Below are positions 18,718-56,109 of a stretch of DNA of 64,000 bases, piece after piece. Position 1 is the stretch's first letter. Every line of letters starts with the position of its first letter. The stretch spans positions 1,668,001 through 1,732,000 of the forward strand of contig NC_018870.1 of NCBI RefSeq assembly GCF_000305935.1. Direction: 5' to 3'. Source of the DNA: Thermacetogenium phaeum DSM 12270 (GTDB taxonomy: Bacteria; Bacillota; DSM-12270; Thermacetogeniales; Thermacetogeniaceae). The notes under the pieces are model-generated. The model worked only from the letters and a program-made list of their open reading frames with translations, made no database searches and had not been told where the DNA came from. A program made the translations under genes and the position numbers.

Positions 18718-18839
18718 CCTCGCTACCCCCTTCCTTAAAAAGCCAGAATAGAAAGGGTTCTGACCGATTCGCGGTTTTTCATATATATTCGCTCCCCGAT
18801 AACAATTTCCTGCCCTGAAAATATGTGTTCATCCTTTAC

Positions 18840-19082
18840 GCTTGCTCCCGGACTCCGGTTTAACTCGCCCTAAGACTTGTCGATAGATAAACAGCCGACC
18901 GGCTCCTATGACGGCATCCCTGCCGCAGAGTCGCCTATCTCGACATCCTGTCTCGATTCGGCTGCCGTTTGCTGCTCCTTCGTCAAGGGCGAGTAACAAC
19001 CTCCGTCAGGTCGCTGCGCCGACAAGGATAAACCCTTTTTTCGTTCCTCTGTTGGTGCCGCCCTGGCGGCATGGTGGTCTAC
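18840..19082. repeat. Dispersed structured repeat, copy A
   Basis: About 190 bases (18840-19029) nearly identical to 55911-56098 in the same orientation. A 42-base insertion (19030-19071, containing a TGCCGCC/GGCGGCA stem) then separates it from an 11-base match, TGGTGGTCTAC (19072-19082). ACTCGCCCT (18863-18871) and AGGGCGAGT (18986-18994) can pair and enclose about 115 bases with further small stems such as CGGCA/TGCCG and GACA/TGTC. No protein-coding signal. Lies between the frameshifted minus-strand gene and sigK. Confidence 0.85.
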
Positions 19083-19315
19083 TGTCTTAACTCAAAATGC
19101 CATCTCATTTCCTACTTTGGGGCCCATACCGCATCAAGCACCTACCCCACCGCCAACTGTGGCCACAAAACCGCCCACATCCTCCAGCACACCAGGCCTT
19201 GCCGGAAGGCCTTCTTATGTGATACATTTGGCTTGTGGGCGGAACAGATCCAGTCTTTGCCCTCAGCAGTGCTTTCTTTCAGTGCCACTTTTTTCGGGCA
19301 GGAAAAAAGACAGGC

Positions 19316-19342
19316 ACAATTCTTCCCGGGAAACCATATATT
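19316..19342 (+). promoter_or_regulatory. Sigma-E/sigma-K-like promoter of sigK
   Basis: AC at 19316-19317 is followed 17 bases later by CATATATT (19335-19342). This fits the sigma-K pattern (AC, 15-17 bases, CATAnnnTA) in all but the last base and resembles sigma-E -10 boxes. It lies 31 bases before the GTG of sigK, which is known to be transcribed by sigma-E and then sigma-K RNA polymerase in spore formers. Confidence 0.45.
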
Positions 19343-19373
19343 GAAATGTGACAAACATCCGGAGGGGATCATT

Positions 19374-19787
19374 GTGACCTTGGAGCTGTTCTTGGCAACA
19401 GCTTTATATTTTCTCCAGGGGCTCGTTTTCTTCGCAGGCTATATCAGCAACAACACCTTCCCGCAACCTCTGTCTGAAGAGGACGAGGCGTTTTTCCTGC
19501 AGCGCATGAAGGAGGGAGATGAGGAGGCACGAAACATCCTGATCGAGCATAACTTGAGGCTCGTCGCCCATATTATAAAAAAATTTGATTCCACGGGAGA
19601 GGATCCAGACGACCTTATTTCCATCGGTACAATCGGATTGATCAAAGCCATCAATACATTCAACTCCGAAAAGGGCACTAAACTGGCAACCTATGCAGCC
19701 CGCTGCATTGAAAATGAAATATTGATTACGAGAACGGGCGGTAATAACCGGAAACTTGCCTTGGCATTTCCCCGGTTTTCAGCATAA
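19374..19787 (+). CDS. sigK: Sporulation sigma factor pro-sigma-K, N-terminal part (interrupted gene)
   Basis: The 5' half of the late mother-cell sigma factor. The GTG at 19374 has GGAGGGG six bases upstream. The first ~20 residues are a hydrophobic pro-sequence ([19 protein letters not shown]) of the kind removed by SpoIVFB in Bacillus, followed by [13 protein letters not shown] and the region 2 block [15 protein letters not shown] and [14 protein letters not shown]. True homology ends at ARCIENEI, codon 116 (19719). The remaining codons to 19787 belong to the inserted element and encode an unrelated tail, so this piece alone lacks region 4 and is not a working sigma factor. Excision joins it in frame to 23443-23801. 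Confidence 0.95.
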
Positions 19788-21279
19788 CCGTAACGATCAC
19801 CCCACCCATGCTCTGCTCTGCCTTACCGGGTTGCGGCCTTCCGGCAACGATAATCTGAGAAACCACTGCCCTGATCAGCGCTCTTTTCTCCTCAAAACTT
19901 AGATCATCGATTCTTTCGAGCAATCGAAGCGCCAGGCGCTGCAGCTCTTCAAGCGCCGCAGCGCCATCTCCGGCTGCCAGCAAATGACGCTCCAGCTCCT
20001 TTTTTCTGTTTTCCAGCCTCTCCCAGCGGCTTTTGAGATCGGCCAGTTTGTTTTTAGTTCTTTCGTCCAGCTCCAACAGACCGGACGCCAAAGCGTCCAC
20101 TATTTTTTCCTTTCCCTTTTCAATTGCTTTCAAGCGCCCCTTGATGTTTTCATACTCCCGCTCGGTTGTGCTTTTCTTCGACATACACGCTGCTGCTTCC
20201 CGGGCTATTGCACCCGCATCGCAGAGAAATCCTTTTATCTGCTCCCAAACTGCATTCTCCAAAACGTCGGCCGGTATTGCTTTGAGAGGGCGGCAGCCAA
20301 AACTCCGGGAGACGCATCCCGCCCGGCGGCAGGTGTATCTGCGCCTGCCCGTCCCCCACCACTTAATGAAGGAGCCCCCCATCGTGTTGCTGCAGTCGGC
20401 ACAGACAAGCAGTCCCGAAAGGAGATATTGATGCCTGCCTTTTTTTGACCAGAGCCGCCGGATCCTCTGAAGTTTCTCCTGTGCCCCGCTCCACGTCCGG
20501 TAGTCAACAATGGCCGGGACGGGGATGGTGATCACTTCTTCAGCCGGTCGTGGAGTACGGGTATGCCAGTCCACTTTCCCGTACTTCCACTCCCCTTTGT
20601 AAACGGGATTAACCAGGATTTGCTTCACCACCTGCCGGTGCCAGCATCCGGCACCCCTCTTGGTAGGGATCCCCATTTCGTTGAGGCGGTTCGCCACGCC
20701 GGCAATCCCGATATCCTCTGTAGTGAACCAGTTAAAAATGCAGGAAACGGTTGCCGCCTCTTCTTCATTTATGGAAACTCTCCCGGTAGCAGGGTCATAG
20801 TGGTAGCCGTAGACGTCAAAATTTACCGGTATCCCCCCCTGCCTCGCCTTCTGGAGCTTCCCCCTGGTCATCCGCTCCCGGATCTTCTCCCGCTCATATT
20901 CCGCAATGGCTCCCTTAATCGAATAAAACAACCGACCCTCAGGGGTATCTTTCCACTCAAAGTCGAGAAACTCCAGTTTAACACCCGCTTTTTCAAATTC
21001 TTCGGTAAGCAATAGTTGATGAGCCAATCTTCGTGAAAGGCGGTCCGGGTCCCGCAGTATCAGACAATCTATTTTGCCCTCACGAACTGCCTCCCGGAGG
21101 GCTTCCAGGCCGGGCCTGTTGAGGGTGGCTCCCGAAATTCCTTCATCGGCAAATTCCAGTATCTCCTCTGCTCCTAACTCCACAGCCTTTTTTTTGCAGG
21201 CAGACACCTGTTCCGCCAGGCTGAAACCGTGCACTGCCTGCTCTTCGGTGCTCACTCTGGCATAGATTGCCGCACGCAT
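19726..21279 (-). CDS. Large serine recombinase (SpoIVCA-type skin excisionase)
   Basis: A 517-residue site-specific recombinase. The resolvase domain (about 1-145) has YARVSTEEQ with nucleophile Ser10, the ADEGISG and RDPDRLSRR motifs and the long E helix ([14 protein letters not shown]). A recombinase domain follows (about 155-250). Then come a zinc ribbon (CADC and YTCRRAGC, roughly 285-320) and a coiled coil (about 370-450) typical of large serine integrases. Its stop is only six bases from the left att core. Expected to excise the element in the mother cell during sporulation; control would come from its promoter and possibly a small directionality factor. Confidence 0.95.
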
Positions 21280-23411: not shown

Positions 23412-23801
23412 ATGCCGCCCGATCTTGTCTTGAGATTTGAAATTTTAATGTTTCTAAGAGCATCAAAAAAGAATAAAAGTGAAGTCTTCCTCTACGACCC
23501 CATCGGAACGGATAAAGAGGGTAACGAAATCACCCTAATCGATGTTCTGGGTACGGAGCCGGAGTCAGTTTCAGATCTGGTTGAAAGGTTTTTCGAGTCC
23601 CAACGCCTTTACGATAAAGTAAAAAAATTAACCAAAAGGGAGCGCAAGGTTTTGGAACTGCGCTACGGCCTTGCCGGAGGGGTGAAAAAGACCCAGCGGG
23701 AAATTGCCCGCATGTTCGGCATTTCCCGAAGTTACGTTTCCCGTATCGAAAAGAAGGCAATTAAAAAGCTGCTCGAAGAATTATCCCATGACACCGGCTG
23801 A
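23412..23801 (+). CDS. sigK: Sporulation sigma factor sigma-K, C-terminal part (interrupted gene)
   Basis: The 3' half of sigK. Genuine homology starts at codon 11 (EILMFLRASKKNK, from 23439); the first ten codons (MPPDLVLRF) come from the element. YDPIGTDKEGNEITLIDVLG and the region 4 helix-turn-helix KTQREIARMFGISRSYVSRI are diagnostic of sigma-K. Alone it lacks region 2 and cannot function. The reconstructed protein (19374-19720 plus 23444-23801) is 234 residues, close to the 241 of Bacillus subtilis pro-sigma-K. An ATG at 23412 exists but has a poor ribosome site, as expected for a fragment. Confidence 0.95.
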   Translation: MPPDLVLRFEILMFLRASKKNKSEVFLYDPIGTDKEGNEITLIDVLGTEPESVSDLVERFFESQRLYDKVKKLTKRERKVLELRYGLAGGVKKTQREIARMFGISRSYVSRIEKKAIKKLLEELSHDTG

Positions 23802-50689: not shown

Positions 50690-51511
50690 TCATTTAAAAA
50701 CATCACACGCATTTAAACCGGTAAGAGGTATCTCTTCTATTAGTTGGGATAGTTTCTTAACAGCATTCTTTTCATATTGAGGTTTTTCTTTTAAAACATC
50801 CTCTAAAACATCCTCATCAATATCACGAAGGAATAGAGGTTTACCCCCTTTAATTCCTCTCCAAGTGTAAATCCTACCGTCAGAGTGGTTTTCCTCATAT
50901 TGACAAGCCTTTTCAAATTTATCTGGATGATATTTTTTTAAGGCTCTCCATTCAGCATCAGTTTGATAAAAGCAGAAATAGCATCCAGATCTCTTTCTCC
51001 ATTTACTATAATCTGGTAATCCTAGACCGGAAGTTTGTAATATGTTTAGTACATCTTCCAAAGTAATACTGTCCTCAACAAAGGGAAATCTAGGTTGAAT
51101 GTTTCCTTTTTTGTTACTATACCCTAGTCGATTTTCGTCTGCCCTGAGAGCTACATAACTATAAGTCCAATCATTACCAATATAATCTTCGTATGGTTTA
51201 AGCTTAAGTTGGCGGGTACACCATCTATTCTGTGGTGATGGTAAAACACCCTTATAATACTTTAACCAGTAATCAAAATCTCGCTCGGATCTCAAAACAG
51301 TTATTTCAATATTCAGAACAGCCCGAATTCTTTCTATATACTCGTAAGTCTCCGGGAGTTCACACCCACTATCTGTAAAAACATATTCAATATCTAAATC
51401 CGGATATTTGTCGCGCATATAGACAGCTAATGCCGCGCTATCCTTGCCTCCCGATAGGGCAAGGATATGCCGTTCCTTTTTACCTTTATTCTGGATGCAG
51501 TTATTTGTCAT
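50690..51511 (-). CDS. PAPS-reductase-family (DndC/SspD-like) ATP pyrophosphatase
   Basis: About 273 residues. The PP-loop ILALSGGKDSAAL is near residue 20, then FTDSGCELPETY as in adenylyl-transferring N-type pyrophosphatases. Cysteines in RWCTRQLKLKP, GCYFCFYQ and KACQYEE could hold an iron-sulfur cluster, as in DndC. In Dnd and Ssp systems this protein activates DNA for sulfur insertion. Start chosen at ATG 51511 inside the end of the ATPase gene (coupled; stop of that gene at 51501). Visibly more AT-rich than the flanking genes. No separate DndA, DndD or DndE is present in the window, so the exact product is open. Confidence 0.85.
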   Translation of the reverse strand: MTNNCIQNKGKKERHILALSGGKDSAALAVYMRDKYPDLDIEYVFTDSGCELPETYEYIERIRAVLNIEITVLRSERDFDYWLKYYKGVLPSPQNRWCTRQLKLKPYEDYIGNDWTYSYVALRADENRLGYSNKKGNIQPRFPFVEDSITLEDVLNILQTSGLGLPDYSKWRKRSGCYFCFYQTDAEWRALKKYHPDKFEKACQYEENHSDGRIYTWRGIKGGKPLFLRDIDEDVLEDVLKEKPQYEKNAVKKLSQLIEEIPLTGLNACDVFK

Positions 51512-54500
51512 TTGAATCACTCTCAATAATTTTCTCTGCCAAAGCAGCGAGAATCACCCTAGCCTTTTCTACAGGAAGTGCCAGAATGGCACTCAATGTC
51601 TTCCGAAGCTCTGGATCCTGGCTCTGCCCAATATTAATGACCTCCCTTCTGATTTTACCGCCAGGCCTCATAATGCTGATCAGCCTGGTATTCTCTTTTA
51701 CAAAGTAACCATTAAGAGAAGCCAATGTTTCCAGCTGACAGATGCGGTGGGCATAGTCTCGTAGTTTTGCAGCAAATAGCATGAAATCCTCATCGTTCCA
51801 GGAGTCCATATGCTTTTTTACTACGATCCCAGCAACACCTCTTGCCCATTCGGCAGGATCTTGATAGTCTCTCGCCAGGACTTGGAGGACAGCCTTAAGT
51901 TCAGGCTCATCGCAGATGTCAACAAGTTGCATGGCTCGTTTTCGCTCGTTTTCATACAGATCTTGTAAGTTTTTGCCCCCAAAAACTTTCAGCATCATTT
52001 TCTGAACACGTTCATTAAGGGCCGGATATGCTTTGCCCAATTCCAAAAGTGCTGCTCTCAGTCTTCTTCGCAATTCATCCCGCCAATTGCTGTTATTTTC
52101 GGACTTTTCTTTAAAATCAATTCCAACGGCCCTAGGCAATTCTTCGAACAAGAGCTGCATCGGATCTACTGACCTTTGAATTGCCAAACGGACTTGTTGG
52201 GCTTCACGGGATACTTGCCTGGTGTTTCTAGCATACGCCGTTAGGCTGTTTATGAATTTTATTATGGGACCGACCACACCCAGCATTGTAGTATTGCGCA
52301 GTCCGCGATTCCCCCCGACCTGAGCATCCTTCAAGATGTGTCTATAAATATCAAAGACTTCCCGCTCTACGTTTTTGGAAACAAATCGCTTCAGAGTAAA
52401 TAAATCCGGGCGTTTGACCATCAGAGCCATTTCAGAAGCGGTCATATAGGGCCGATAAGAATTTTCTTGAAAAACGGCGATCTCCTCGGATTTGACAATA
52501 AGATATAAGCAGATATAAATAGGAGCCGGTCCCTGCCTCATACCGAAGGGCGGTTCGTGCAGAATATCGAGAATTTCGGCAACGCTTATCCCTTCGTCAC
52601 CAGCAGCGGCTATACATTCATCCAGCTTATCCCATAAATATTTCAACGAGGGATCGTTACCTTCTAAAGAACAACGCCAACAACCTGTCTCTTCATCCAT
52701 AACATGCAACCCTTTTGCCAAAAGCAGAGATCTGTATACAGCTACCTCAGGGCCATACCCTTCTAATCCAAGCTGCTCTTCCTCGGCACTTGTTACCATT
52801 GCCTCAACAAGTTCCCGCCGGGCCCTTGCAGCAGCGCTTGATAATTTTTCATAACTGATCATCTCATTACCTATATATGGGCATTTCCAATAAAATCGGT
52901 CGCATAGGTCAGAAAGCTTGGAAGAGAGTTCTCTAGCGTCCCGCACCTCCACCCGCTTTCCCTCTGAATACCAGAGCACATTCTCAGAGCCGGGGAGATA
53001 AAGCCTGGCTAGGTGCTCGCGAAACTGCTGCTCTGCAGCCTTGATGCGAAACTTAACCTCTTTTCTCGCCACACCATCGTGAGCGAGTTCATGGCTTTCC
53101 TCCAGCACTAAGCGGGCAGCGATTACTTCCAAAGCAAGCTCATGAAGAGTCGTCCTGGAAGAAACATATGCCATTATAAGCGGCCGACCATCCCGGCATG
53201 TTTTCGGGACAACAGCCGGCTCTTTAAGGGTTCCGAAACAATAGAGAAAGAGCCCATCATAACCATTTTGAGGAGTTAGATCATCCGACAGCGATTCCAC
53301 ATCCAACCAGCGCCGTTCGAAGCGCCTGACGGTTCCAGTTTTGTAAGCATGGCGAGAAGCAACAACCGGAGAAAGTGGTAAATATTCCTGCAGAAGCGCC
53401 TCAAGCGACCCAATAGAAAGCCTTGCCTTCTTTTCCCGAATCGCTCCGTATACATCAAAATCAGAGCCTTCCCAAAGTCGGTACTCCCCAGCGTATTCTC
53501 TGTACAGAAGAATGCCTCTTTTAACCAAATTTTTAATCGACAACGTAACAGCATCTCTATCTGTGCCTTGTGAGTATCTCATAACAGTATAGATAATATG
53601 TAGATCAGCTTTGATGCCAAGGGTTCCCGACAAAAGGTTAAGCACTCCGACGGTTTTTAAAATGGCATGATCCTGTAATGAAAGGTAGCCGGCGTTTTCA
53701 ATTATGTCATAAATCTCTATCCACCTTTGGGATTCAGCGCGGTTGCTATAAACGGTAGTGCTAATACTGAAAAAGTAGTCATAAAGATAGTCAAGTCCTA
53801 AAGCAGGCAATCTTTCCTGAGCGGTGAATTCAGTCTTTTCCAGGTATGCAGGCAACGCATTCGTTTGTCCGCTACACATGAATGAAAGGAGCGTCCGATC
53901 ATTTTGGGCAAAGCGACGGCATAGTTCAATCAAGGCAACGGCAGTTAAAGGATGAAGAGGATACAGGCTTGCAATGGTATCTTCATCAAAATTATTCTTA
54001 TAGGGTATATTAATTTTATTAATAAGCTGAGACGCTTCTCTTGCCCATTGCTTTATGCGATCCTTGACTATCTTGTCATTATTTTGTTTTAATGCCTTGC
54101 GCATCAAGTAAAGCATCTGGGGTGCCGGTTCCACGAAGGAGATATCCTCAAAACGCCCCTGGACCTTGCTCCATTCCTGCCTCTGAGCTGTAGATAATCC
54201 AAAAACATATTCGTCAAAGGCCTGATGCAGGCAGACCCAGATGTAAACCGAATCCGCTTCTGCTAACTGCTGCAAGATGAAAATATCACCTTGATCATGA
54301 TAATGCGACATATAATCCAAATTTTTGCCAAATTCGTCTATCACTATAAGTAAGGGCCTTTTAACAGATTGTTGGATATCCATGAAGGCGGTAAAAAGCT
54401 TATGAGAATCTATAAATCTCTCACTTTGAAACGCTTTCAATTTAGAAAGATGTTCGGCAGTATCAGATATTCCAAAAGCCATTAGCGCCTGCTCCAGCCC

Positions 54501-54911
54501 TCGAGCCAGGGTGTTGTTCACGGGTTCGTAAGCAGCTGTTACAAAAATCTGAAAAAAACCTGCATTCCCAACCGCTTTATTTATGCTATCTAACAGCCTT
54601 TCATACAGCTGAAAATTGGCAGATCTCAGTTTCTCAAGAGCAATTTGCGCTCTTTTGCTGCTTGTCGGACCGGTAAGAGCGAGAAGGTAATTAGCGAAAG
54701 CCGATTTGCCCATCCCGTACGGCCCTGTCAAAGACCAGGCGGAAACCCTCTCTCCTTCTAAAGCACATCTAAAACGGTCAAGAATCTCGAGAGTCTTCGT
54801 AGTTACCTGGTAATCTTCCATTAAAACGGTATCCTTACAATCTCTTTCTATATTTATTGAGCGAACGATGTTCATGTCTACGGTGATAAAGTCTACTAGT
54901 TTCATTTTCAT
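51501..54911 (-). CDS. Large AAA-type ATPase of the defence operon (first copy type)
   Basis: 1136 residues. Walker A SLTGPYGMGKSAF at residues 60-72 and Walker B LLIVIDEFGKNLDYM near 187-201. The YPLHPLTAVALIELCRRFAQNDR segment resembles lid regions of large defence ATPases such as BrxC/PglY. The C-terminal half is helical with a charged end. The ATG at 54911 overlaps the DUF4007 stop (ATGA). It shares the N-terminal P-loop and DEFG Walker B plan with the 1441-residue ATPase at the other end of the operon, suggesting an ancient duplication. DNA processing for modification or sensing is the likely role. Confidence 0.8.
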   Translation of the reverse strand: MKMKLVDFITVDMNIVRSINIERDCKDTVLMEDYQVTTKTLEILDRFRCALEGERVSAWSLTGPYGMGKSAFANYLLALTGPTSSKRAQIALEKLRSANFQLYERLLDSINKAVGNAGFFQIFVTAAYEPVNNTLARGLEQALMAFGISDTAEHLSKLKAFQSERFIDSHKLFTAFMDIQQSVKRPLLIVIDEFGKNLDYMSHYHDQGDIFILQQLAEADSVYIWVCLHQAFDEYVFGLSTAQRQEWSKVQGRFEDISFVEPAPQMLYLMRKALKQNNDKIVKDRIKQWAREASQLINKINIPYKNNFDEDTIASLYPLHPLTAVALIELCRRFAQNDRTLLSFMCSGQTNALPAYLEKTEFTAQERLPALGLDYLYDYFFSISTTVYSNRAESQRWIEIYDIIENAGYLSLQDHAILKTVGVLNLLSGTLGIKADLHIIYTVMRYSQGTDRDAVTLSIKNLVKRGILLYREYAGEYRLWEGSDFDVYGAIREKKARLSIGSLEALLQEYLPLSPVVASRHAYKTGTVRRFERRWLDVESLSDDLTPQNGYDGLFLYCFGTLKEPAVVPKTCRDGRPLIMAYVSSRTTLHELALEVIAARLVLEESHELAHDGVARKEVKFRIKAAEQQFREHLARLYLPGSENVLWYSEGKRVEVRDARELSSKLSDLCDRFYWKCPYIGNEMISYEKLSSAAARARRELVEAMVTSAEEEQLGLEGYGPEVAVYRSLLLAKGLHVMDEETGCWRCSLEGNDPSLKYLWDKLDECIAAAGDEGISVAEILDILHEPPFGMRQGPAPIYICLYLIVKSEEIAVFQENSYRPYMTASEMALMVKRPDLFTLKRFVSKNVEREVFDIYRHILKDAQVGGNRGLRNTTMLGVVGPIIKFINSLTAYARNTRQVSREAQQVRLAIQRSVDPMQLLFEELPRAVGIDFKEKSENNSNWRDELRRRLRAALLELGKAYPALNERVQKMMLKVFGGKNLQDLYENERKRAMQLVDICDEPELKAVLQVLARDYQDPAEWARGVAGIVVKKHMDSWNDEDFMLFAAKLRDYAHRICQLETLASLNGYFVKENTRLISIMRPGGKIRREVINIGQSQDPELRKTLSAILALPVEKARVILAALAEKIIESDSNDK

Positions 54912-55849
54912 TTAGCTCCCAGTATAGTTCTTTTCGAGTTGTAATACCTCTGCAGAGCTTCCCAGTATAGCTCTTCGGGGGCACCACTATAGTGAAGTTG
55001 AATACTGCCCATCGTATCTACCAGGGAAAAGCTCTCAAATTCCTTTCCGGCAGCATATAGACAGGAACCAACCGCACTCTCCGGCACCTTGAAAACTACG
55101 CCAGGAGAATTAAAATCATAGGTTAACCGCTGCAAAGACATGGTTTTTTGTTTTCCTGATGCATATGAGTGAATGTACGAAAAACAAGCAGCAGCAAATA
55201 TCAAAGGTGGCAGGTTAGGTTTTTCAGCAGTATCAAAACTATAATGGTTTTTTTCTTCTGCTCTGCGAATGATCCCCAGCTGAGCAAAAGGGCATTCGAT
55301 TTCATACTCTTTCGTTGACGATACATCGCTATACATCCTGATTATGCAAGAAGCATCCCTTTCAAAAGATTTCTCCGATAGTGAGGCAAAACGCGGGTAC
55401 TTTTGGGCAACACTTTTTATCACACCGGCAAGCTGTTTTATATCAAAACTCCAAAGGTTGCATTTGTTAAAGGCCAGCGGCCAACTAACTGCCTGGAAAG
55501 GCGGTATAAAGAGTTGCCAATGCAGCAACCATAAAGATGCCACATCCTCTAGGTAAGGATCCCATCCTTCATCATCTAGAAGACTGTGGCCTAACTTTGT
55601 CGGCCTTATATAACCATGAGAGTCGGGTTCAATGAGCTTGAATGCTTGACACCAGAACCGTATAGAACTGACCATATTTTTTCCAACGCCAAGACGCTCT
55701 ATTGAGTCGCGTGCTTTGAAAACATCACCATTTTGGAGCACAGCATCATAACCTTTTTTCAACCATCCATACCGCGGGGTGAATGTTTCATGCCTTCCCA
55801 TGCACGCTTGAGCAATATAGTCGTCCTGCTTCAATGTCCCCGTTTGCAT
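54908..55849 (-). CDS. DUF4007 family protein, first gene of the defence operon
   Basis: About 313 residues. GRHETFTPRYGWLKKGYDAV, then LGVGKNMVSSIRFWCQAFKL, TKLGHSLLDDEGWDPYLED and SLWLLHWQLF are the DUF4007 signature, a family that accompanies PAPS-reductase-like genes in defence islands. The central part probably forms a winged helix that could bind DNA. I take the ATG at 55849; an upstream TTG at 55873 is also possible. It lies about 60 bases from repeat copy B, so the operon promoter falls in or beside that repeat. Overlaps the next gene by four bases. Confidence 0.8.
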   Translation of the reverse strand: MQTGTLKQDDYIAQACMGRHETFTPRYGWLKKGYDAVLQNGDVFKARDSIERLGVGKNMVSSIRFWCQAFKLIEPDSHGYIRPTKLGHSLLDDEGWDPYLEDVASLWLLHWQLFIPPFQAVSWPLAFNKCNLWSFDIKQLAGVIKSVAQKYPRFASLSEKSFERDASCIIRMYSDVSSTKEYEIECPFAQLGIIRRAEEKNHYSFDTAEKPNLPPLIFAAACFSYIHSYASGKQKTMSLQRLTYDFNSPGVVFKVPESAVGSCLYAAGKEFESFSLVDTMGSIQLHYSGAPEELYWEALQRYYNSKRTILGAK

Positions 55850-55910
55850 TCCCCTGGTTCCCTTCTTTTCCAAGAAACTGCTATAAAAATACGTTCCGGT
55901 TTATCCTTGA

Positions 55911-56109
55911 GCTTGCTCCCGGACTCCGGTTTAACTCGCCCTAAGACTCATCGCATCAGGTAGCCGACCGGCTCCTATGACGGCATCCCTGTTGCAGAGT
56001 CGCCTATCTCGACATCCTGTCTCGATTCGGCTGCCGTTTGCTGCTCCTTCGTCAAGGGCGAGTAACAACCTCCGTCAGGTCGCTGCGCTGGCAAGGATTG
56101 GTGGTCTAC
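55911..56109. repeat. Dispersed structured repeat, copy B
   Basis: Nearly identical to 18840-19029 plus 19072-19082, without the 42-base insertion present there. ACTCGCCCT (55934-55942) and AGGGCGAGT (56055-56063) are kept. In the small internal hairpin CGGCA/TGCCG, this copy has TGTTG, which still pairs through G-U in plus-strand RNA. Lies immediately upstream of the defence operon. Confidence 0.85.

What the first reader, a model, noticed from the sequence alone, without database searches (positions are those of the whole stretch)
18840..19082. Dispersed ~190-base repeat with conserved long-range pairing (copy A)
Copy A and copy B (55911-56109) are nearly identical over ~190 bases, non-coding, and both keep ACTCGCCCT/AGGGCGAGT arms about 115 bases apart. 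Changes such as TGCCG to TGTTG keep pairing by G-U on the plus strand. Both copies also lie just upstream of a minus-strand gene (frameshifted wall gene; defence operon). It may be a structured RNA, a small non-autonomous mobile element, or a shared leader.
Basis: seen in the sequence. Interest (0 to 1): 0.62.

Follow-up and report, generated by a model that had tools for sequence, protein, structure and literature searches.

The report
Mobile CsrA-type RNA on IS110 ends
The repeat is one of about thirty copies of a folded RNA, of a known type thought to soak up the regulator CsrA, that in this genome sits between the ends of a transposon that has lost its own transposase and so seems to have been spread as its passenger.

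Summary
The repeat is real and is read on the minus strand. It has two nested layers. (1) The inner ~160 nt is a divergent TwoAYGGAY RNA (Rfam RF01731, same Rfam clan as CsrB): two GGA hairpins on a multi-stem scaffold with heavy compensatory change, plus an outer stem that the Rfam model leaves out. The genome holds 32 copies at E<=1e-3; three pass Rfam's cut-off, window copy A does not (38.1 against 43). (2) That unit sits between the two ends of IS110-family elements (core AG/CT; left end with a GCCGCC hairpin; right end TATTTTCAGGGC-AG). The same ends bound two autonomous IS110 elements and a second repeat family; a CRISPR repeat interrupted by these relatives shows a precise insertion. 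Best reading: a transposase-less IS110-type element carrying a CsrA-binding-type RNA as cargo. It is not the IS110 bridge RNA: sister genomes carry the unit between such ends in the opposite orientation, and others lack those ends. In other families the same RNA lies in different ends next to duplicated hairpins. CsrA co-occurs with it (47 of 49 against 245 of 349 genomes). Movement, transcription and CsrA binding are inferred. The plus-strand reading is not supported; the non-autonomous-element reading is.

The parts
18810..19080 (-). copy A: whole non-autonomous IS110-type element (RNA sense = minus), core dinucleotide CT/AG at 18810-18811 and 19079-19080
   Evidence: ends shared with other copies, with type-2 repeats and with autonomous IS110
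18810..18823 (-). copy A right end (RE): TATTTTCAGGGC-AG on the minus strand
   Evidence: matches the RE of two autonomous IS110 elements (TTTTCAGGGC-AG; TATTTTCAGGGT-AG)
19035..19080 (-). copy A left end (LE): AG-ACCACCATG, GCCGCC...GGCGGC hairpin (19057-19070), CACCAACAGAG, A-run
18850..19008 (-). copy A TwoAYGGAY core RNA
   Evidence: RF01731 38.1 bits, E 2.6e-4, cut-off 43; own model R1 163.9 bits
18827..18836 (-). outer stem P1, 3' strand (pairs with 19024-19033)
   Evidence: fold; P1 tested across genomes
19024..19033 (-). outer stem P1, 5' strand
   Evidence: fold
18942..18952 (-). first GGA hairpin GACAGGATGTC
18913..18924 (-). second GGA hairpin GGCAGGGATGCC
55878..56107 (-). copy B: same element, with the LE hairpin and A-run deleted; core CT/AG at 55878-55879 and 56106-56107
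55921..56077 (-). copy B TwoAYGGAY core RNA
   Evidence: R1 158.5 bits; fold z -3.1

Best explanation
Each copy is a transposase-less IS110-family element of about 270 bp. Its ends are those of resident autonomous IS110 elements, so a DEDD transposase acting in trans probably moved it, by exchange at an AG (CT) core. Its cargo is a TwoAYGGAY RNA read from the minus strand of the window: a long outer stem, a multi-stem scaffold and two hairpins that each show GGA. The most likely action of the RNA is to bind CsrA with both hairpins, so that many dispersed copies together buffer free CsrA. Shown here: the RNA homology and structure, the strand, the ends, the precise insertion of relatives with the same ends, copy number, and co-occurrence with csrA. 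Inferred: movement in trans, transcription, CsrA binding, any net effect on the host.
For: RNA: RF01731 match on the minus strand; three G000 copies above Rfam's cut-off at 48.6, 46.2 and 45.3 bits; 26 of 33 pairs with change on both sides; sense strand favoured; outer stem median -43.8 kcal/mol for own flanks against -21.3 for flanks swapped between genomes, 37 genomes; exactly two GGA hairpins on average and at least two in 40 of 40 genomes' representatives, spaced 27-39 nt; RF01731 and CsrB share Rfam clan CL00106. Vehicle: identical ends on type-1 and type-2 repeats and on autonomous IS110 elements whose protein hits PF01548 (1.3e-38) and PF02371 (8.1e-23); type-2 and IS110 copies sit exactly inside the CRISPR repeat GTTTCAATTCCTCAT-AG-GTACGCTGAAAAC; target consensus TATTTYANRGY-AG resembles the element's own right end. 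CsrA: 47 of 49 against 245 of 349 genomes, Fisher p 4.2e-5.
Against: Copy A itself scores below the RF01731 cut-off. No empty site was found for a type-1 copy; the precise-insertion evidence comes from type-2 and IS110 copies. The csrA co-occurrence is not corrected for phylogeny or motility and has two misses (G182, G377); within the window's own family it is 9 of 10 against 4 of 10, p 0.057. The GGA loops are part of what the Rfam model selects for, so 40 of 40 is partly circular. Some G000 copies have lost a GGA (L015, L016, L017). Two sites per RNA is few beside CsrB. No expression data.
Confidence: 0.68

Rival explanations
1. The dispersed RNA is the IS110 bridge RNA of a minimal IS110 element and guides its own insertion.
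For: It lies between IS110 ends, and bridge RNAs are structured left-end RNAs with two prominent internal loops (PMC11208160, sections 6, 7 and 12 read).
Against: In G002 and G014 the unit lies between such ends in the opposite orientation; in G012, G017, G019, G036, G022 and G030 no such ends are present. The autonomous elements have their own, different noncoding left-end RNA, with nine nucleotides equal to the right-end junction (CAGGGCAGA, 23 of 1000 donor shuffles reach that length); in the second IS110 both the right end and this stretch change to CAGGGTAGA (by eye).
Confidence: 0.06
2. A purely selfish repeat: the RNA structure serves transposition or DNA folding (for example a hairpin), and CsrA is irrelevant.
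For: Outer-stem complementarity would also suit a DNA hairpin or inverted ends; tandem copies and decayed copies are common; in other genomes the copies are flanked by duplicated hairpins.
Against: Asymmetry between strands, near-invariant GGA loops on stems that keep changing, conservation of the inner RNA while ends and outer stem differ between families, and csrA co-occurrence.
Confidence: 0.22
3. A shared 5' leader or cis-regulator of the genes downstream.
For: 17 of 23 copies have the nearest downstream ORF on the RNA's strand; RF01731 carries the Rfam type Cis-reg.
Against: Downstream genes are unrelated (a Cu_amine_oxidN1 protein; sspB/sspC); distances vary from about 0 to 824 bp; Weinberg 2010 marks the motif 'n' for cis-regulatory (PMC2864571, one passage seen).
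Confidence: 0.08

Closest known systems
TwoAYGGAY RNA, Rfam RF01731 (Weinberg 2010)
   Same: homologous by covariance model; same two-hairpin GGA architecture; same strand
   Different: window copy scores below the gathering cut-off; the outer stem here is much longer than the Rfam model; multi-copy and bounded by transposon ends, which the passages I saw do not describe
CsrB/RsmB-type CsrA-sequestering sRNAs (Rfam clan CL00106)
   Same: GGA in hairpin loops; same Rfam clan; the CsrA link was proposed by motif match (PMC4333381, section 9 read)
   Different: two sites per RNA instead of about 22 in CsrB (PMC10729762, passages seen); many dispersed copies instead of one gene; no binding data
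IS110-family insertion sequences (IS621, ISEc21)
   Same: DEDD transposase in the autonomous relatives, a core dinucleotide and no other target duplication, noncoding left-end RNA
   Different: no transposase in the element; carries an unrelated RNA cargo
bacterial MITEs
   Same: short, non-autonomous, multi-copy, ends shared with an autonomous IS
   Different: in this genome the outer ends show no terminal inverted repeat and no target duplication beyond AG

Membership tests
TwoAYGGAY RNA (RF01731) | covariance-model score at or above the gathering cut-off of 43 bits | tested here: inconclusive
   copy A 38.1; 3 of 9 listed G000 matches exceed it; the 18 best copies are 89-96% identical to copy A
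TwoAYGGAY RNA (RF01731) | two hairpins with A-N-GGA-Y type loops on a closed multi-stem scaffold | tested here: met
IS110-family non-autonomous element | ends identical or near-identical to those of an autonomous IS110 in the same genome | tested here: met
IS110-family non-autonomous element | precise insertion with only a core dinucleotide shared | tested here: met
   CRISPR-repeat insertions of type-2 and IS110 copies; not shown for a type-1 copy
IS110-family non-autonomous element | mobilised in trans by the IS110 transposase | not testable with these tools
   needs an excision or circle assay
IS110 bridge RNA | lies in the noncoding end of the element in a fixed orientation and pairs with donor and target | tested here: not met
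   opposite orientation in G002/G014, ends absent elsewhere
CsrA-binding sRNA (Csr/Rsm) | GGA in hairpin loops, more than one per RNA | tested here: met
   40 of 40 genomes; partly circular because the model selects for it
CsrA-binding sRNA (Csr/Rsm) | host encodes CsrA | tested here: met
   G000 has one CsrA; 47 of 49 carriers
CsrA-binding sRNA (Csr/Rsm) | binds and titrates CsrA | not testable with these tools
   no binding or expression data
TIR-type MITE (in G000) | terminal inverted repeats and a target-site duplication | tested here: not met
   ends differ (LE ACCACCATG, RE TATTTTCAGGGC), only AG shared

The most novel reading that the evidence does not exclude
TwoAYGGAY is a mobile CsrA sponge: an RNA cargo taken up by unrelated non-autonomous transposons (IS110-type ends in the window's family; elements with CAGACTGTAGACAAA-type ends, next to duplicated terminator-like hairpins, in three other genera) and thereby amplified to tens of copies that jointly tune, or parasitise, the host's CsrA regulon.
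Probability: 0.35. Interest if true: 0.8.

Novelty: new variant of a known kind. Interest (0 to 1): 0.6.

Why it matters
In the papers seen here TwoAYGGAY has had no assigned role since 2010 beyond a motif-based CsrA guess. Showing that it is carried by transposon ends and that its carriers nearly always have csrA turns two open questions (what it does, why it is multi-copy) into direct tests. If the CsrA part holds, it would be a case of a global regulator's sponge being copied around a genome by mobile DNA.

Tried and rejected
Rfam at gathering thresholds found nothing in the window; the relaxed search found the family. Exact 32-mer in genome contigs: none; the second scan with another 28-mer found 102 stretches, 80 listed, in relatives titled Clostridia bacterium isolates 25 and 27 and Syntrophomonadaceae bacterium AS04akNAM_112 (read from titles only). 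Phages and plasmids: no match. My first alignment mixed strands because genome-search loci are not turned to the match; it was redone. Bridge-RNA reading of TwoAYGGAY: considered after the IS110 ends appeared, rejected. IS1182-type transposase (a recalled lead) as partner of the CAGACTGTAGACAAA ends: PF13751 genes were found in G128 and G250, but none carries those ends in its locus. Right-donor and target guides in the IS110 left-end RNA: short matches only; the seven-base match of the first IS110 is not mirrored in the second, so I do not claim them. Literature: TwoAYGGAY is in 7 papers, 5 listed; IS110 + bridge RNA + non-autonomous: 0 papers; IS110 + non-autonomous + MITE: 8, none on this by its listing; RNA motif/mobile element/terminator hairpin/CsrA: 14, 8 listed, none on this by its listing; CsrA/sponge/Firmicutes/GGA/sRNA: 3, none on this by its listing. 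Only the held open library was searched.

Full report
What is there. Copies A and B are two of many. blastn finds 43 places in the window's 2.94 Mb genome, called G000. A covariance model built here finds 36 at E<=0.1, 32 of them at E<=1e-3. On the minus strand A reads AG-ACCACCATG, a GCCGCC/GGCGGC hairpin, CACCAACAGAG, an A-run, the RNA unit, and TATTTTCAGGGC-AG. B has lost the hairpin and A-run.

The RNA. A relaxed Rfam search gives TwoAYGGAY, RF01731, on the minus strand with 38.1 bits, below the cut-off of 43. In the whole genome 9 places were listed at E<=0.001, three above the cut-off, so membership rests on the paralogs. In an alignment of 28 sequences from nine same-family genomes and three others, 26 of 33 predicted pairs show change on both sides. 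On the predicted pairs of the Rfam strand there are 25 G-U against 6 A-C cells; folding the reverse complement gives 15 against 9 for its own structure; the Rfam strand folds better in 28 of 28, and has 5.1 against 0.8 GGA per sequence. Single-sequence folds agree.

An outer stem not in the Rfam model. Beyond the model, the flanks of each copy pair with each other, with a sequence that differs from genus to genus. One copy per genome, 37 genomes of 61 usable copies from 68 fetched (copies with short or N-containing flanks or short cores were dropped): median duplex -43.8 kcal/mol for own flanks against -21.3 for flanks of different genomes; 24 of 37 lie beyond the 1st percentile of the mismatched ones. 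[quoted passage not shown] it is not conserved in sequence but is in pairing.

The vehicle. A search for the left end found further elements with the same two ends but another body ('type 2', about 300 bp), and three places with that left end of which two lead into an intact IS110 gene and one into a chimeric copy. The gene hits DEDD_Tnp_IS110 and Transposase_20. A second IS110, at 2.035 Mb, has left end AG-ACCTCCATG and right end TATTTTCAGGGT-AG, closer still to type 1. Of 17 Transposase_20 places in G000, four carry such an end: three have both, and one (L196) shows only the right end in its locus. Two type-2 copies and two IS110 left ends lie inside the CRISPR repeat GTTTCAATTCCTCAT-AG-GTACGCTGAAAAC, with intact repeats alongside; the junctions are precise and share only AG. 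No such empty site is at hand for a type-1 copy. Among 46 left boundaries, 11 abut another element's right end or a close likeness of it; over 30 others the sequence upstream of AG is T-rich at -9 and -8 (19 of 30 each, p 2e-6) and G at -2 (23 of 30), like the element's own right end. The 46 are those of the type-1/type-2 left ends that passed the boundary pattern; 5 of the 46 were left out of both groups because the core did not read AG.

Cargo, not guide. In G002 seven of ten fetched copies, and in G014 four of four, have the RNA unit between IS110-type ends in the opposite orientation to G000; in G012, G017, G019, G036, G022 and G030 no such ends flank the copies fetched. The autonomous IS110 elements have a different left-end RNA, in which nine bases equal the right-end junction; the base that differs between the two elements' right ends differs in that stretch too. 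So TwoAYGGAY is not the bridge RNA described for IS110 (PMC11208160, sections 6, 7, 12 read; PMC11187229, outline and abstract only).

Other vehicles. In G128 the motif CAGACTGNAGACAAA occurs at 172 places (13 for the reversed control); of seven exact ones read, five are TwoAYGGAY elements and two are deleted or truncated relatives. Of 18 elements picked by pattern among loci of G128, G250, G121 and G049, 12 have flanks more alike than the 95th percentile of swapped flanks, the repeated stretch being a terminator-like hairpin in most; in two of the other six the right boundary was misplaced by my pattern. I did not find the transposase.

CsrA. RF01731 shares its Rfam clan with CsrB. One representative from each of 40 genomes has at least two GGA hairpins (mean 2.0), 27 to 39 nt apart; shuffled sequences have two or more in 8.5%. 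In 398 genomes of the phylum, drawn at 90% completeness or more, 49 have TwoAYGGAY; 47 of these and 245 of the other 349 have csrA (Fisher p 4.2e-5). In the 41 nearest genomes it is 12 of 13 against 16 of 28. This is not corrected for shared descent or motility. GGA as the key of CsrA binding and CsrB's 22 copies are from PMC10729762 (passages).

Verdict. New variant of a known kind: a known RNA family, whose CsrA link was proposed before, shown here to be carried by IS110-type ends in this genome and by other ends elsewhere.

Noticed in passing
window 19071-19787 (+), 23412-23801 (+), 19726-21279 (-): A sigK-type sporulation sigma gene is split: N-part matches SigK profile positions 5-118 and C-part 113-231 (NF004471), with a large serine recombinase gene between them, like a skin-type element. 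Copy A lies just upstream of the N-part.
   Followed up: partly
G000:C1 e.g. 2741822 (L050), 65368 (L054), 2463474 (L048): A second dispersed ~300 bp repeat family with the same IS110 ends and a different, apparently structured body with no Rfam match.
   Followed up: partly
G000:C1 2.438-2.465 Mb (L048, L049, L106, L107, L115, L116): CRISPR direct repeats interrupted four times by IS110 elements or their non-autonomous relatives; one IS110 copy is itself interrupted by another IS110-type transposase gene.
   Followed up: partly
window 51501-55873 (-): Copy B ends a few tens of bases 5' of an sspB/sspC pair (Ssp-type defence; PADLOC E-values 1e-102 and 0).
   Followed up: no
L212-L216 (G074): In L214 the RNA unit is inverted relative to the outer flanks of L212, as if the long outer stem allowed inversion.
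   Followed up: no
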